Of a DNA stretch of 64,000 bases, positions 15,406 through 21,244 are shown in pieces (positions within the stretch are counted from its first letter, which is position 1; each line of letters begins with the position of its first letter). The DNA is from Haloferula luteola. Its GTDB lineage: Bacteria > Verrucomicrobiota > Verrucomicrobiia > Verrucomicrobiales > Akkermansiaceae. The notes under the pieces were generated by a model. It was given only the letters and a program-made list of their open reading frames with translations, did no database searches and had not been told where the DNA came from. The stretch covers positions 1 through 64,000 of the forward strand of contig NZ_JACHFD010000010.1 in assembly GCF_014201715.1 (NCBI RefSeq), read 5' to 3'. The position numbers and the translations under genes were made by a program.

Positions 15406-16717
15406 TCTCATCGAATACGGCCTCTGCCGACGAGACCGTGCTCTTGGCGCCGAGAATCACGGGCTGAAAACCCTCGGCCACTTGGTCGCGCCCGTGAGAG
15501 CCCTTCACCAGACTGGCATCCAGAGGAATCACTTCAAGCAAACCTCGTAAGCCCAACTTCTTCTTCAAGAGGAACCTGGCAATTTTCCACTTCGGAAATG
15601 CCAGCGCGGGATCCAAAAACAACTCGGCCGGATCATACCCTGGCTTGCGGTGAATATCGATGGTTCGCGCAAAGTCCGGTGCCTTCGCGTCGTCCTCCCA
15701 GAAATAATAGCTGAACCAAGCTCCCGGTTCCGCCACCACCACGAAATCCCCACTGCGGTCCCCGTCGATCGAGTCCCGCACTTCGGCCACCCCATCGAGA
15801 CTCTGCAAGAAGCTCCTCAACTCCGAAGTCGGACCGTGAACCGAGTAGACATGGGCCACTTGGTGGTCGGCCACAGCCATCACTTCAGAGCCGAAAACAT
15901 CCAAAGTTTCTCGACCCAGTTCGTCTTTGACCTGGAGCCAGCCTTGCTTGCGAAGTTCGCGATTGATCGCAATTGGCCGGTCGACCGCCTCAATGCCGTA
16001 TTCCGATACCACCCGGACCGCAATGCCACGCTCCTCATAGAAAGTGATCAGTTCCCCGGCAACCCGGTCAATGGACTCCAATTCTGCAACCATTTCAGGC
16101 GCTTCTGGCCCCCACTTTTGCAGACCGTAGTCCAGATGGGGCAGGTAGACGAGGGATAGGGTCGGCTGTGCCTTTTCTTCGGTCCAGCGAGCTGCCTGAG
16201 CAATCCATTCCGAGGCGGCAATTCCAGCAGCAGGCCCCCAAAAGGCAGGAAAAGGAAAGTCCCCCAAGTCCCCTTTTACTTCCTCTCGCCACTCCAAGGG
16301 TTGAGTGTGAATATCGAAAACCTTGCGACCATCTGCCGGATACAAAGGCCGGGGAGTCATCGCGAAATCTGCGGCAGTGGCCATGTTGTACCACCAGAAT
16401 AAATTCGCACAGGTGAAGGATGGATACCTAGCTCTCAGAACCTCCCAGATTTTGGGCGACCTCACCAAGCGATTGCTCTGTTTCCAAAATCGCACTTCTG
16501 CGGACTCGCGATCATACCAGCCATTCGCCACAATCCCATGATCCGATGGTGGCTGGCCCGTCAGCATTGAGGACTGAGCAGTGCAGGTGACAGCGGGAAA
16601 AGCCGGAGCAAACGATTGAGTCCCCCGCTCTTCCGCAAATGCCGTAAGACGCGGCATTCTCTCACCCAGCAAGGATCGAGAAAGCCCGACGACATTGATC
16701 ACTGCCGTTCTCTGCAT
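15380..16717 (-). CDS. Alkaline phosphatase-superfamily nucleotide pyrophosphatase/phosphodiesterase
   Basis: 445 residues. The N-terminal core contains NVVGLSRSLLGERMPRL and the likely nucleophile region FPAVTCTAQSSMLTG, then PPSDHGIVANGWY and RFWKQSNRLV. LPHLDYGLQKWGP and VVSEYGIEAV occupy the places of later metal-binding motifs. The subfamily resembles phosphodiesterases found in ebo-type metabolite clusters, but no other ebo gene is here. The substrate is unknown. No signal peptide is evident. It is divergent from glmM, and the intervening 162 bases hold two inverted repeats. Its end overlaps the PHP gene. Confidence 0.8.
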   Translation of the reverse strand: MQRTAVINVVGLSRSLLGERMPRLTAFAEERGTQSFAPAFPAVTCTAQSSMLTGQPPSDHGIVANGWYDRESAEVRFWKQSNRLVRSPKIWEVLRARYPSFTCANLFWWYNMATAADFAMTPRPLYPADGRKVFDIHTQPLEWREEVKGDLGDFPFPAFWGPAAGIAASEWIAQAARWTEEKAQPTLSLVYLPHLDYGLQKWGPEAPEMVAELESIDRVAGELITFYEERGIAVRVVSEYGIEAVDRPIAINRELRKQGWLQVKDELGRETLDVFGSEVMAVADHQVAHVYSVHGPTSELRSFLQSLDGVAEVRDSIDGDRSGDFVVVAEPGAWFSYYFWEDDAKAPDFARTIDIHRKPGYDPAELFLDPALAFPKWKIARFLLKKKLGLRGLLEVIPLDASLVKGSHGRDQVAEGFQPVILGAKSTVSSAEAVFDEIIRTVEGE

Positions 16718-16774
16718 GGCCCCACCCTTCCGCCAGCCTGCTCACGATGCCAGATCAAATCCTCGCCTGATGAA

Positions 16775-16796
16775 ATGTTCAGTTTTTTGTGAACAT
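16775..16796. promoter_or_regulatory. Inverted repeat, glm upstream site 1
   Basis: A 22-base dyad ATGTTCA-N8-TGAACAT with perfect 7-bp half-sites. It lies in the divergent intergenic region, 58 bases before the phosphodiesterase start and 84 before glmM. The same motif recurs 74 bases downstream, which supports a protein-binding operator over a chance hairpin. Confidence 0.6.
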
Positions 16797-16848
16797 CACT
16801 CTTATCCCTCTCTTGCCGACCCCCACTTTTCGTGCATTTCCGAATTGC

Positions 16849-16870
16849 ATGTTCAGGATTTTTTGAACTA
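16849..16870. promoter_or_regulatory. Inverted repeat, glm upstream site 2
   Basis: A second copy, ATGTTCA-N8-TGAAC(ta), with the same 8-base spacer, ending 9 bases before the glmM ATG. Centre-to-centre distance from site 1 is 74 bases, about seven helical turns, so both would lie on the same DNA face. A bound repressor here would block glmM transcription or translation initiation. Confidence 0.6.
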
Positions 16871-16879
16871 AAAATCCCC

Positions 16880-18232
16880 ATGAAGCTTTTCGGGACTGAT
16901 GGCATTCGAGGTCGGGCAAATGAATTTCCGATCACTCCGGAAGTCGCTCTCCGTGTGGGTCAAGCGGTCGCCCAGGTGCTCAAATCGAAGGGTCAGCGAG
17001 GCCATCGGGTGGTGGTTGGAAAAGACACCCGGATATCAGGCTACATGCTAGAGACCGCTTTGACGGCTGGCCTGGTGTCGTCGGGCATGGATGTTTACCT
17101 ACCGGGCCCCCTCCCCACCCCCGCGATTGCCCACCTTACCAAATCGATGGGTTGCGCAGCTGGCATCATGCTCACCGCCTCGCACAATCCTTTCGAAGAC
17201 AATGGCCTGAAGATTTTCGGACCCGATGGATTCAAACTCAACGACGAGCTTGAAGGATGGATCGAGCGCCACATTCTCGGAGAGGAAGGCGATGCCCCTG
17301 CAGTACCACCGGCTCAAATTGGCAAAGCACACCGCATCGACGATGCTCGGGGCCGCTATATCGAGTATGCCAAGCACACGGCCGACAACATCCCACTGCA
17401 TGGCCTCAAAATTGTCGTCGATTGCGGCCATGGAGCCGCCTGGTTCATCGCGCCCCTGATTTTTCGGGAACTCGGTGCAGAAGTGATCAAGACGGGCTGC
17501 ACCCCAGACGGCATCAACATAAATGACGGCTGCGGAGCTCTGCATCCGGAACATGCCGGACAACTTGTGCGCGCCCACGGAGCGGATCTCGGGATTTCCT
17601 TTGATGGGGATGCCGACCGGGTGATTTTCACCGACGCCACCGGGACCCCGGTTTCCGGCGATCGCATTCTCGCCCTCAGCGCATTGGCATTGAAGGAACA
17701 AGGGAAGCTGAAAGGCGACACCATTGCGGTGACCGTGATGAGCAATCTCGGCCTCCATGAAGCCATGACAAAGAACGGCATCAGGGTGCTGACCACCGCA
17801 GTGGGCGACCGCCACGTCATTGAAGCCTTGCGAGAGAACCACAGCTCCTTTGGCGGAGAAAACTCCGGACACTTGATTTTCGCCGACCACGCCACCACGG
17901 GCGACGGCATCCTCTCCGCACTCCAAGTGCTGGGAATGATGAAGCGCCGGCAGGCGTCTCTGGCAGAATTGGCGAACTGCATGACGGAGTTTCCCCAGAA
18001 ACTCATCAATCTTCCCGTGGCCTCCAAACCACCTATCTCCACCCTCCCCTTGCTGAATCAGGCCATGGCGGAGGCAGAAGCGGCTTTCGGGAACGAAGGC
18101 CGCCAATTGATCCGCTATTCCGGCACCGAGAACAAAATCCGCATTCTTGTGGAACACCGAGACGCCGCCACCGTGGAGGAATGGACGGGCCGATTCATCC
18201 GCGTGGTCCAGCAAGAACTCGGAGCCGCCTAA
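16880..18232 (+). CDS. glmM: Phosphoglucosamine mutase
   Basis: 450 residues, the usual GlmM length; ATG at 16880 opens on the diagnostic MKLFGTDGIRGRAN. It converts glucosamine-6-phosphate to glucosamine-1-phosphate for UDP-GlcNAc and hence peptidoglycan and LPS. The phosphoserine loop TASHNP (Ser101), metal loop FDGDADR, sugar loop GGENSGH and phosphate-binding RYSGTENK are present. It is the first gene of glmM - acetyltransferase - glmS; the next gene starts 10 bases later. Two matching inverted repeats upstream suggest repressor control. Confidence 0.96.
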   Translation: MKLFGTDGIRGRANEFPITPEVALRVGQAVAQVLKSKGQRGHRVVVGKDTRISGYMLETALTAGLVSSGMDVYLPGPLPTPAIAHLTKSMGCAAGIMLTASHNPFEDNGLKIFGPDGFKLNDELEGWIERHILGEEGDAPAVPPAQIGKAHRIDDARGRYIEYAKHTADNIPLHGLKIVVDCGHGAAWFIAPLIFRELGAEVIKTGCTPDGININDGCGALHPEHAGQLVRAHGADLGISFDGDADRVIFTDATGTPVSGDRILALSALALKEQGKLKGDTIAVTVMSNLGLHEAMTKNGIRVLTTAVGDRHVIEALRENHSSFGGENSGHLIFADHATTGDGILSALQVLGMMKRRQASLAELANCMTEFPQKLINLPVASKPPISTLPLLNQAMAEAEAAFGNEGRQLIRYSGTENKIRILVEHRDAATVEEWTGRFIRVVQQELGAA

Positions 18233-18241
18233 CTCGCCACC

Positions 18242-19081
18242 ATGCCTGTCCTCGACCACCGCAGCATCCCCGATTTCCCGATTGGAAATCGTCCCCTTCG
18301 AGACCACCACCGAGCCTGGGGTTCCCGCTGGAGCTTTCATCCTCACGCCTGGATCTCTCCAAACGACCTCGCAGAGCTCAAGACAAGCGGCGCCCATTCT
18401 TTGATGGACGCCTCGGGTACCCGCCTCGCTTGGCTGGAAACATCCTCCGCTTCTGACGACTCCAAGCTTCCCGCGCAGGAGTCTTTCCTCATCGTCCACT
18501 CTTGGGACCTGCTACGGGCTCAAGAACTCTACGTTGGTGCGATGGAGGCCGACCTCGAGACCATGGCCACCCTTCGCTCGACTGGTCAAATTCACCCTCT
18601 CGCCGTCATCGATGGAGCGGTGGTGATCGGTCCTGGAACGCGCATCCTTCCTGGAGTCGTCATCGAGGGCAATGTGGTCATCGGCTCCGATTGCAAAATT
18701 GGCCCCAACTGCTACCTGCGGGGGAGCACTTCGATTGGCGACCGCTGCCACGTCGGAAATGCTGTTGAAATCAAGAATTCCATCCTGCTCTCCGGCACCA
18801 ACGTCGGACACCTGTCCTACGTCGGCGACTCGATTCTCGGCGAAAAAGTCAATTTGGGTGCCGGCACGGTGACCTCCAATCTGCGCCACGATGGCAAAAA
18901 CCATCGGACCCTGATCGACGGCTCTCTCGTTGATACCGGTCGCCGGAAATTCGGCACGATCATCGGCGATGGCGTCCACACCGGCATTCACACATCCATT
19001 TATCCCGGCCGAAAATTGGGCACGGGCACCTCGACTCTCCCGGGACAAATCGTCAAAACTGACCTCCCCAGCTCACTCTAA
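18242..19081 (+). CDS. Stand-alone GlmU-type acetyltransferase (archaeal-like left-handed beta helix)
   Basis: 279 residues. Residues about 115-270 form a left-handed beta-helix of hexapeptide repeats (VVIGPGTRILPG, VVIGSDCKIGPNCYLR). The segment GHLSYVGDS holds a His (190) at the place of the GlmU catalytic His, and VNLGAGTVTSNLRHDGKN plus DTGRRKFGTIIGDG match the archaeal sugar-1-phosphate nucleotidylyltransferase/acetyltransferase style better than the E. coli GlmU NYDG form. The N-terminal 110 residues are far too short for the uridylyltransferase domain; SWDLLRAQ looks like its last remnant. Lying between glmM and glmS, it should acetylate glucosamine-1-phosphate; a separate uridylyltransferase must be encoded elsewhere. 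Confidence 0.82.
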   Translation: MPVLDHRSIPDFPIGNRPLRDHHRAWGSRWSFHPHAWISPNDLAELKTSGAHSLMDASGTRLAWLETSSASDDSKLPAQESFLIVHSWDLLRAQELYVGAMEADLETMATLRSTGQIHPLAVIDGAVVIGPGTRILPGVVIEGNVVIGSDCKIGPNCYLRGSTSIGDRCHVGNAVEIKNSILLSGTNVGHLSYVGDSILGEKVNLGAGTVTSNLRHDGKNHRTLIDGSLVDTGRRKFGTIIGDGVHTGIHTSIYPGRKLGTGTSTLPGQIVKTDLPSSL

Positions 19082-19096
19082 TTTCTTTCTCACATC

Positions 19097-20938
19097 ATGT
19101 GCGGCATCGTCGGATACATCGGTAAAGCCTCCGCCCCCTCCATTCTCATCAACGGCCTTCGCCGCCTCGAATATCGCGGCTACGATTCTGCAGGTCTTGC
19201 CGTGCTGGAGGATGGCCGGGTGATTGTCAGCAAAGCCCCGGGGAAAGTTGCCTCCCTTCACGAAAAGGCCCGACACGATTGGCCCGCGGAACGATTTGCC
19301 CGCTGCAATACCGGCATCGCCCACACCCGCTGGGCCACTCACGGCCCGCCAACTGAAATCAACGCTCACCCGCACCTTGATGAAAGCGGCGACATCGCGC
19401 TCGTGCACAATGGCATCATTGAGAATTATCGATCTCTGCGAACCCGCCTCGAATCGAAAGGGCATCACTTCTACTCCGAGACGGACACTGAAGTCCTCTC
19501 CCATCTGATTGGCGACAACGATAAGGGCGATTTGTTCCAAGCCGTTTGCGATGCCCTCCATCAAGTGGAAGGCACCTTCGGCATCGCCGTGGTCTCCGCA
19601 CGCGAACCCGATCGCATCATCACCGCACGCCGCGGCAGCCCGATTGTGATCGGAGTCGGCGACGGTGAAACTATCATCGCATCCGACGCCTCCGCGATCA
19701 TCTCCCACACCCGGCAGGTGATCTATCTGGAGGACAATGACATCGCCATCGTCACGGCCGATCATGTCGAAATTCGCGATCTTGATCAGGTTCCGGTGAC
19801 CCGCGAGGTGGCGGAACTCGGCTTCGATGCCGAAGCGGCGGAAAAAGGAGGCTTTGAGCATTTCATGCTCAAGGAGATCCATGAGCAGCCCGATGCCCTG
19901 CGCAACGCCATTCGTGGCCGACTCGACTTCAACCTCGGCTCGTCGGTGCTCTCGGGCATGGGATCGTCTGCTCGCGACCTCGCGGAAATTCAGCGGGTGG
20001 TCATGGTCGGCTGTGGAACCTCCCTTCACGCAGGGCTCGTCGGTGAGTACGCCTTTGAAGACCTCGCCGATGTCCACGCGGAGGTTCAACAAGCCGCTGA
20101 ATTCCGATACCGCAACCCCCTCATCACTCGTAGCGATCTCGTCGTTGCCATTTCACAGTCTGGAGAAACGGCCGACACCTTGGCTGCCGTCCGTGAGGCC
20201 AATCAGAAAGGCGCCTTTGTGATGGGACTGTGTAACGTCGTCGGTTCCACCATTTCCCGGGAAACGGGACGCGGCGTGTATTTGCACGCAGGGCCTGAAA
20301 TCTCCGTGGCATCGACCAAGGCCTTCACCTGCCAGGTGGCGGTGCTCCTCATGATGGCTCTCAAACTCGGTCGAGGTCGACGCTTCTCCCGCGAAGAAGG
20401 AACGCGCCTCGCCCGGGAAATCGAGAGACTCCCCGAACTGGTCGAGAAGGTCGTGACCCAAAGTGCCCGTATCGCAGATATCGCCAAGCGATACGCAGAC
20501 CACGAACACACCTTCTTCATTGGGCGGGGATATCTCTACCCGGTGGCCCTGGAGGGAGCCCTCAAACTCAAAGAGATCTCGTACATTCACGCCGAAGGCT
20601 ACCACGCCGCCGAGCTCAAGCATGGCCCGATTGCCTTGCTGGTCGAAGGCACCCCTGTCATCGCACTCGCCAACGATATCCCAGGCAAAGACAAGACCCT
20701 AGGGAATGTTGAAGAGTGCCGGGCACGTGGCGCTCGCATCCTCGGCGTCATCACAGAAGGAGACCACGAAGCCGCGGAATTCATGGACGACGTCATTGAG
20801 ATCCCCGCCTGCCATCCTCTGGTCTCCACCATTCCGACCGCCGTCGCCCTGCAGCTCCTCTCCTACCACATTGCCCGCCACCGCGGCTGCGAAATCGACC
20901 AACCCCGGAACCTCGCGAAGTCCGTCACCGTCGAATAG
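19097..20938 (+). CDS. glmS: Glutamine-fructose-6-phosphate aminotransferase (isomerizing)
   Basis: 613 residues, typical GlmS size. It makes glucosamine-6-phosphate from fructose-6-phosphate and glutamine. The N-terminal glutaminase nucleophile is Cys2 (MCGIVGYIGKA), with RRLEYRGYDSAG, HTRWATHG and HNGIIENY; two SIS sugar-isomerase domains follow (GCGTSLHAG, SQSGETADT, STKAFTCQV), and the C-terminus ends LAKSVTVE. It is the last gene of the glm cluster, 15 bases after the acetyltransferase. The short gap leaves no room for a glmS ribozyme. A strong hairpin follows. Confidence 0.97.
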   Translation: MCGIVGYIGKASAPSILINGLRRLEYRGYDSAGLAVLEDGRVIVSKAPGKVASLHEKARHDWPAERFARCNTGIAHTRWATHGPPTEINAHPHLDESGDIALVHNGIIENYRSLRTRLESKGHHFYSETDTEVLSHLIGDNDKGDLFQAVCDALHQVEGTFGIAVVSAREPDRIITARRGSPIVIGVGDGETIIASDASAIISHTRQVIYLEDNDIAIVTADHVEIRDLDQVPVTREVAELGFDAEAAEKGGFEHFMLKEIHEQPDALRNAIRGRLDFNLGSSVLSGMGSSARDLAEIQRVVMVGCGTSLHAGLVGEYAFEDLADVHAEVQQAAEFRYRNPLITRSDLVVAISQSGETADTLAAVREANQKGAFVMGLCNVVGSTISRETGRGVYLHAGPEISVASTKAFTCQVAVLLMMALKLGRGRRFSREEGTRLAREIERLPELVEKVVTQSARIADIAKRYADHEHTFFIGRGYLYPVALEGALKLKEISYIHAEGYHAAELKHGPIALLVEGTPVIALANDIPGKDKTLGNVEECRARGARILGVITEGDHEAAEFMDDVIEIPACHPLVSTIPTAVALQLLSYHIARHRGCEIDQPRNLAKSVTVE

Positions 20939-20996
20939 TCACCGACTGAGATCCGATCGGAAAGGACTCCCTCTCTACCCCCTCCTGAAAAATCAA

Positions 20997-21042
20997 TCCC
21001 CGGACGTCGGTGGGGGTCACCAGCGTCCGGGGACTTTCATTT
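20997..21042 (+). terminator. Long hairpin terminator after glmS
   Basis: A perfect 10-bp outer stem (TCCCCGGACG at 20997, CGTCCGGGGA ending 21033) with an inner GGTG/CACC stem, followed by CTTTCATTT. It lies 58 bases past the glmS stop. The T-tract is imperfect, but the stem is very stable; intrinsic termination of the glm operon is the simplest reading. Confidence 0.65.
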
Positions 21043-21244
21043 CGGGGGAATTGTCTTTCCGCAAGCCATTGGGGGATCGCTTGTCGTGAAAGGTGCATCC
21101 ACGATTTCCGCAGGGCGGTTCCGTGTGAAGACGTCGGGAGCATGAACGCATTTCTTCGCTCTCCTATCACGCGATCACGGATCACCAATTCCTGCATCAA
21201 TGAGGCCTTGCCGGTTTTCGTCAGCGTCCCCAGCATGCCTCCCG

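What the first reader, a model, noticed from the sequence alone, without database searches (positions are those of the whole stretch)
18242..19081. Archaeal-type stand-alone GlmU acetyltransferase between glmM and glmS
The gene encodes only the left-handed beta-helix half. It has GHLSYVGDS and NLRHDGKN/DTGRRKFG, features I know from archaeal bifunctional sugar-1-phosphate enzymes rather than bacterial GlmU. SWDLL near residue 90 looks like the last trace of a deleted nucleotidylyltransferase domain. This implies a split acetyl/uridylyl pathway, perhaps acquired by transfer.
Basis: partly seen in the sequence, partly recalled or inferred. Interest (0 to 1): 0.55.

Follow-up and report, generated by a model that had tools for sequence, protein, structure and literature searches.

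The report
Stand-alone archaeal-type GlmU acetyltransferase with relic domain
A bacterium related to Luteolibacter appears to make a key cell-wall building block with an archaeal-style enzyme that has lost half of its usual double function and kept only a shrunken remnant of the lost half, so the missing step must be done by another, still unproven, enzyme.

Summary
Its beta-helix is archaeal-type: best model Arch_glmU (228 bits; bacterial GlmU 102), best solved structure ST0452. Six residues aligned with E. coli GlmU R333, K351, H363, Y366, N377, N386 (acetyl-transfer roles recalled) are invariant in 48 of 48 rows. The first ~100 residues look like a shrunken nucleotidylyltransferase (NTase) relic without GxGTR loop, lysine or metal aspartate; the whole model superposes on ST0452 (Z 26.9, 261 residues). 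No GlmU was found in the genome, and 0 of 194 sampled genomes of the phylum pass the bacterial GlmU cut-off. So UDP-GlcNAc synthesis is probably split: this protein acetylates GlcN-1-P, a separate uridylyltransferase finishes. The partner is unproven; the best candidate is a 316-aa MurU/GMPP-like enzyme (L041), in 30 of 194 genomes, 28 without the presumed UAP-type enzyme that 131 of the other 164 have. Recent transfer from archaea is not supported: strong relatives occur in 51 of 194 genomes (15 family handles). The tree leaves the origin open, and the operon is kept only among nearer relatives.

The parts
18242..19081 (+). X: stand-alone archaeal-type GlcN-1-P acetyltransferase (GlmU C-half type), 279 aa
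18242..18499 (+). N-terminal relic of a nucleotidylyltransferase domain (aa 1-86): GxGTR loop, PK lysine and core missing
18500..18514 (+). SWDLL linker (aa 87-91), equal to PWELL(EANE) at the end of the archaeal NTase domain
18584..19039 (+). left-handed beta-helix acetyltransferase domain (about aa 115-266)
18806..18832 (+). GHLSYVGDS (aa 189-197) with H190 and Y193, aligned with E. coli H363 and Y366
18878..18901 (+). NLRHDGKN (aa 213-220) with N213, aligned with E. coli N386; archaeal-type signature (the six bacterial GlmUs have NYDG)
18932..18955 (+). DTGRRKFG (aa 231-238), similar to S/D-T-G-R-R-K-F/L/Y-G of archaeal GlmU
16832..18232 (+). glmM, phosphoglucosamine mutase (would supply GlcN-1-P)
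   Evidence: TIGR01455, 564.5 bits
19097..20938 (+). glmS, glutamine-fructose-6-phosphate transaminase
   Evidence: TIGR01135, 798 bits

Best explanation
X is the glucosamine-1-phosphate N-acetyltransferase of a split UDP-GlcNAc pathway. GlmS makes GlcN-6-P, GlmM turns it into GlcN-1-P, and X, probably as a trimer of beta-helices with acetyl-CoA, makes GlcNAc-1-P. X descends from a two-domain archaeal-type GlmU whose uridylyltransferase domain was cut down to a ~100-residue inactive relic. A separate uridylyltransferase elsewhere in the genome makes UDP-GlcNAc. Shown here by sequence and model: gene order, predicted fold, conserved residues, loss of the NTase active-site motifs, no GlmU found in the genome. 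Inferred: enzyme activity, trimer, substrate, descent, identity of the partner.
For: glmM-X-glmS with 9 and 15 nt gaps, same order in 62 of the 80 nearest named loci. Arch_glmU 228.4 bits over aa 86-271, matched by 48 of 48 rows. ST0452 E 1e-36 with a gapless 170-residue match. R160, K178, H190, Y193, N204, N213 invariant in 48 of 48 and aligned with E. coli R333, K351, H363, Y366, N377, N386 (roles recalled). NTase residues lost in the window protein: the G14, G16, R18 and D105 columns are gaps and K25 is I9. Own genome: nothing over the GlmU cut-off, X being the best TIGR01173 match; one X copy. 0 of 194 genomes over the GlmU cut-off, against 9 of 14 controls. The model superposes on ST0452 over residues 1-270, Z 26.9.
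Against: No activity was measured. ST0452-type proteins also act on GalN-1-P (recalled), so the substrate could differ. Two lysines recalled as important in ST0452 (K337, K340) fall on K219 and R222, which vary (K in 29 of 48, R in 42 of 48), and E. coli S405, A423 and R440 are not kept. The operon is not phylum-wide: of 51 genomes with a strong match, 8 have glmS within 5 kb, 32 have it elsewhere and 11 show none. A profile match occurs in 25 genomes where glmS was not found, and 41 genomes with glmS have no match. The genome is 95.5% complete, so an unseen GlmU cannot be fully excluded. Full-length archaeal-type (TIGR03992) and alt_bact (TIGR03991) enzymes were not sought across the phylum. 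The partner is not identified.
Confidence: 0.82

Rival explanations
1. Partner question, reading A: the 316-aa MurU/GMPP-like NTase (L041, G000:C2:237212-238159 minus) is the GlcNAc-1-P uridylyltransferase that completes the pathway.
For: GxGTR...PKP motif and NGD present by reading. Present in 30 of 194 genomes, 28 of which lack UAP-type UDPGP, while UAP-type is in 131 of the other 164 (Fisher p 1e-14). One UAP-type example matches UDP-GlcNAc pyrophosphorylase structures at E 2.9e-81.
Against: 19 of the 30 genomes are one family, so the counts are not independent. 'UAP-type' for 133 genomes is assigned by E-value of the UDPGP match; four proteins were read by eye and one of them compared with PDB. 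33 genomes have neither. Closest models are mannose-1-P guanylyltransferase and MurU, all below cut-off. Not near glmM/glmS.
Confidence: 0.4
2. Partner question, reading B: the only UDPGP-family protein found (L039, 467 aa) makes both UDP-Glc and UDP-GlcNAc.
For: A single strong UDPGP match in each of the 19 sampled genomes of the window's family; none of the three PF00483 hits of the genome reaches a GalU cut-off, so L039 is likely needed for UDP-Glc and might be broad.
Against: It is of the Leishmania UDP-glucose pyrophosphorylase type (2oef, E 5e-122); UDP-GlcNAc pyrophosphorylases match only at 1.5e-4.
Confidence: 0.2
3. X acetylates another amino-sugar 1-phosphate (for example GalN-1-P) and UDP-GlcNAc is made another way.
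For: Archaeal relatives are named only 'sugar-1-phosphate' enzymes; ST0452 is reported as dual (recalled). In 32 of 40 genomes with both a strong match and glmS the two are not close.
Against: Same order with glmM and glmS in 62 of the 80 nearest loci and no GlmU found in the genome.
Confidence: 0.1
4. X was recently acquired from archaea by horizontal transfer.
For: Arch_glmU is the best model; 38-51% identity to archaeal enzymes in the archaeal rows listed.
Against: Strong matches (E below 1e-80) in 51 of 194 genomes over 15 family handles, which points to an old presence in the phylum; the AU tests leave the origin open.
Confidence: 0.1

Closest known systems
Archaeal bifunctional sugar-1-phosphate NTase/acetyltransferase (TIGR03992; ST0452, PDB 2ggo/5z09)
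   Same: Beta-helix domain, HLSYVGDS, NLR-D and RRK motifs, WDLL/ANE linker, six aligned acetyl-transfer residues; predicted fold over residues 1-270
   Different: NTase domain reduced from about 220 to about 100 residues; no GxGTR, PK lysine or metal Asp; score below the family cut-off (228 against 292)
Bacterial GlmU (TIGR01173; E. coli)
   Same: Same reaction expected of the C-terminal half; R, K, H, Y, N, N residues align; glm gene context
   Different: 102 bits against cut-off 367; NLRHD instead of NYDG; no NTase; not inside the bacterial group of the tree
alt_bact_glmU (TIGR03991) with NTP_transf_4 (PF13562)
   Same: The N-terminal relic gives weak PF13562 matches in 11 of 46 members, best E 0.0041
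   Different: The window protein itself has no PF13562 match; 105 bits against cut-off 225
Short stand-alone helix proteins of other Verrucomicrobiota families (about 226-246 aa; L151, L152, L155)
   Same: L151 and L155 also match Arch_glmU best, from position 215-218 on; L152 comes from G109, which also has a GlmU-NTase match, as does G206
   Different: Different N-terminus; separate group with a Persicobacter protein (100/100); H at the N204 column

Membership tests
TIGR03992 archaeal-type bifunctional GlmU | score over the curated cut-off (292.1 bits) | tested here: not met
   228.4 bits, profile 216-393 only
TIGR03992 archaeal-type bifunctional GlmU | NTase domain with GxGTR and PK motifs | tested here: not met
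   columns are gaps or changed
TIGR03992 archaeal-type bifunctional GlmU | archaeal-type beta-helix acetyltransferase domain | tested here: met
   profile-profile E 1.8e-68 to five archaeal GlmUs over 188 columns
TIGR01173 bacterial GlmU | score over cut-off (366.85 bits) | tested here: not met
   101.6 bits
TIGR01173 bacterial GlmU | phylogenetic place inside bacterial GlmU | tested here: not met
   six bacterial GlmUs form one group without X, 100/100; a small sample, and X next to that group is not rejected (p-AU 0.36)
GlcN-1-P acetyltransferase (function) | acetyl-transfer residues R, K, H, Y, N, N | tested here: met
   48 of 48; residue roles recalled; E. coli S405, A423, R440 not kept
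GlcN-1-P acetyltransferase (function) | enzyme activity | not testable with these tools
   no bench work
alt_bact_glmU TIGR03991 / PF13562 | PF13562 N-terminal domain | tested here: inconclusive
   11 of 46 members weakly, best 0.0041; none for the window protein
alt_bact_glmU TIGR03991 / PF13562 | score over cut-off (225.3 bits) | tested here: not met
   104.7 bits
NTase fold (relic) | N-terminal domain has the NTase fold | tested here: met
   whole model Z 26.9 to ST0452 from residue 1; domain alone Z 3.8-6.7, 23 of 26 rows NTase-type by title, among Foldseek's 227 top candidates. Foldseek alone not significant (best E 2.2)

The most novel reading that the evidence does not exclude
The dead NTase relic is kept for a purpose: a pseudoenzyme domain that docks the separate uridylyltransferase or senses UDP-GlcNAc, so that the phylum took GlmU apart and re-joined its two steps as a complex whose second enzyme was swapped between lineages (UAP type, MurU/GMPP-like type, archaeal NTase half).
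Probability: 0.15. Interest if true: 0.65.

Novelty: new variant of a known kind. Interest (0 to 1): 0.47.

Why it matters
GlmU is usually treated as a standard bacterial enzyme and a drug target (recalled). Here a sample of one phylum shows none over the bacterial GlmU cut-off (0 of 194), the acetyl step is probably done by an archaeal-type protein with a shrunken dead NTase domain, and the uridylyl step may be done by different enzymes in different lineages. That makes the missing UDP-GlcNAc pyrophosphorylase of these bacteria directly testable with a few named genes.

Tried and rejected
Full GlmU elsewhere in the genome: not found. UAP-type partner in the genome: not found; the single UDPGP protein is of UDP-glucose type. 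L042 as partner: unlikely as a lineage-specific replacement because it occurs in 181 of 194 genomes, including many with UAP-type matches; a general role is not excluded. Recent archaeal transfer: not supported. Operon kept phylum-wide: checked and rejected, 8 of 40. N-terminal domain as a new fold: rejected. Foldseek alone with the N-terminal model gave nothing significant (best E 2.2; ST0452 at rank 20, E 5.7). Profile of the N-terminal domain against PDB sequences: best hit 4y7t, 'Nucleotidyl transferase' (MurU, recalled), at E 0.047, not significant alone but at the homologous place 12-59; next hits were nicastrin at 0.7. hhalign to five archaeal GlmUs: 38 columns, probability 64%, pairwise E 6.6e-5. 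Promoter and terminator scans were at chance level; all four terminator-like sites were on the minus strand. Literature: ten searches; no listed title or abstract start treats a split GlmU in Verrucomicrobia, but one search found 118 papers and listed 12, one search found none, and only open-licence papers are held, so absence from print is not shown. Papers: PMC5902328, PMC5814848, PMC4803751 and PMC11046441 seen as passages; the rest as search listings only.

Akkermansia test: the 17 sampled genomes of genus handle g3 (probably Akkermansia, by family, size and lack of glmS; not named by a tool) have glmS in 0 of 17, in line with PMC5902328, yet a divergent X in 12 of 17. This speaks against a strict tie of X to GlmS.

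Full report
What is there. It sits between glmM and glmS on the same strand, 9 and 15 nt apart, and the simple scan shows no plus-strand terminator-like site in 16600-21200. The window is contig C10 of a 4.9 Mb genome, 95.5% complete. Contigs of genomes of the same genus handle have the lengths of records named Luteolibacter marinus, Haloferula rosea and Haloferula sp. BvORR071, so it is a Verrucomicrobiota member near those genera; this is an inference.

Beta-helix half. NCBIfam gives Arch_glmU 228.4 bits (aa 86-271), alt_bact_glmU 104.7 and bacterial GlmU 101.6; in the 48-row alignment A2 every row matches Arch_glmU, best E 3.5e-73 against 1.6e-31 for GlmU. The best PDB sequence matches are ST0452 entries at 1e-36, with the best bacterial GlmU at 2.9e-20. 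In plasmid records, 102 records match and the 30 listed are all archaeal, 38-50% identical. R160, K178, H190, Y193, N204 and N213 are invariant in 48 of 48 and align with E. coli R333, K351, H363, Y366, N377 and N386; that those residues act in acetyl transfer is recalled. E. coli S405, A423 and R440 are not kept in X; S405 and A423 differ in the archaeal rows too.

N-terminal domain. In the alignment with five archaeal GlmUs it equals the PWELLEANE end of the NTase domain, and the N-terminus (PLTxTR...FPIGN.PL..H in relatives) lies on RPLTxxRPKPMLPVAGRPLVEH. The domain is conserved less than the helix: median identity to the window protein is 35.9% for aa 1-80 against 72.5% for aa 115-275, and two of 48 rows (L118, L122) have lost most of its middle. 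AlphaFold2 gives pLDDT 89 for the whole and 91 for the domain alone. The whole model superposes on ST0452 with Z 26.9, rmsd 3.1, 261 residues, model 1-270 on chain 15-401. The domain alone aligns at Z 4.9 to ST0452 15-225 with 96 residues. Of the 26 rows with Z 3.8 or more, 23 are NTase-type by title (IspD, CobY, MobA, GMPP, glucose-1-phosphate cytidylyltransferase, ST0452, Rv0371c, Rv2983) and three, among them the top two, are CDP-alcohol phosphotransferase entries. Z values under 8 are weak alone, only Foldseek's 227 top candidates were aligned, and Foldseek itself found nothing significant; the case rests on the joint evidence. So about 115-125 residues of the NTase core seem lost, including GxGTR and the metal aspartate; the lysine column is I9, and the N227 column, N in 12 of the 16 X rows of that alignment, is Q94 in the window protein. 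An active NTase is very unlikely.

Genome and phylum. Own genome: seven PF12804, three PF00483 and one PF01704 hits. By model or by reading these are a MocA-like enzyme, MobA, IspD, KdsB, a mannose-1-P guanylyltransferase, L041, L042 and a Leishmania-type UDP-glucose pyrophosphorylase. In one sample of 194 genomes of the phylum: bacterial GlmU over cut-off 0, against 9 of 14 controls; profile A1 match 113, of which 51 below E 1e-80, in 15 family handles; UDPGP 165; glmS 129; L042 181; L041 30. Full-length archaeal-type or alt_bact GlmU was not sought across the sample. Of 57 relatives searched with the protein itself, by my count 36 have an X-type match (E 1e-58 or better), 15 a weaker match at 1e-26 to 1e-33, and 6 neither.

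Gene order. glmM-X-glmS holds in 62 of the 80 nearest named loci. It does not hold phylum-wide: of the 51 genomes with a strong match, 8 have glmS within 5 kb on the same strand, 32 have glmS elsewhere (contig breaks included), 11 show none. In all, 88 of 113 genomes with a profile match have glmS, 25 do not, and 41 with glmS have no match.

Partner. UDPGP hits fall into two kinds: strong UGP type (E 1e-112 to 1e-135) and weak ones (1e-42 or worse). One weak one (L143) is a UAP/AGX relative (E 2.9e-81) and three more show the same GGQG-RLG motif. Counting the weak ones as UAP type, 28 of 30 genomes with L041 lack it and 131 of 164 without L041 have it; 33 have neither. The typing of the rest is by E-value only, and 19 of the 30 are one family. 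In family f8 a separate 235-aa NTase (L153, genome G206) matches the NTase half of Arch_glmU (180 bits, positions 1-218), and the same genome has a stand-alone helix match, so there an archaeal-type GlmU seems to exist as two genes. I rank L041 as the likeliest partner here (0.4), L039 next.

Origin. A tree of 35 helix domains (16 X, of them 2 from genus handle g3; 8 archaeal; 6 bacterial GlmU; 4 short stand-alone; 1 Enterobacter plasmid acetyltransferase with a long branch) groups the bacterial GlmUs (100/100), the archaeal (97/98) and the short proteins (100/100); X rows sit unresolved between them, and the two g3 rows fall next to the short proteins (88/92). X as one clade (p 0.30), X+archaea (p 0.19) and X+bacterial GlmU (p 0.36) are all not rejected. 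Branches are short to archaea (0.49) and long to bacterial GlmU (2.22), but archaeal sampling is only haloarchaea and Methanohalobium. Wide spread in the phylum argues against a recent transfer; an ancient one stays open.

Known context. PMC5902328 (passages) reports that Akkermansia muciniphila lacks GlmS and needs GlcNAc or GalNAc; PMC5814848 (passages) says GlmM and GlmS are absent there. PMC11046441 (passages) describes the Sulfolobus tokodaii enzyme as a trimer through the helix like GlmU, the basis for expecting a trimer of X. No listed paper treats a split GlmU in this phylum (searches and their limits are named under Tried and rejected).

Verdict. The transfer idea is not supported. 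It is a new variant of a known kind, of moderate interest.

Noticed in passing
L167:1156-4107 (-) and L168:1332-4436 (-), unnamed Verrucomicrobiota genomes G199 and G164: Proteins of 983 and 1034 aa with a GlmU-like NTase at the N-terminus and what looks like a GHMP-kinase part (GGFSSSSA motif, read by eye; no domain scan run); open frames of about 870-1060 aa with such matches occur in several family handles. Perhaps a kinase plus uridylyltransferase salvage enzyme.
   Followed up: partly
17 genomes of genus handle g3 (probably Akkermansia) in the phylum sample; loci L148, L149: Divergent X in 12 of 17 genomes although glmS is found in 0 of 17; the two proteins fetched are 338 and 321 aa with a longer, different N-terminus.
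   Followed up: partly
genomes G025, G028, G029, G030: A second, more divergent X-like copy (46-53% identity to the window protein) in each.
   Followed up: no
window 18554-18574 (about aa 105-111): The window protein has a short insertion (about 7 aa) after the linker that the other 47 rows of alignment A2 lack; low model confidence there (66-79).
   Followed up: no
L153:722-1429 (-), genome G206, family handle f8: Stand-alone archaeal-type NTase half (180 bits to Arch_glmU positions 1-218) in a genome that also has a stand-alone helix match.
   Followed up: partly
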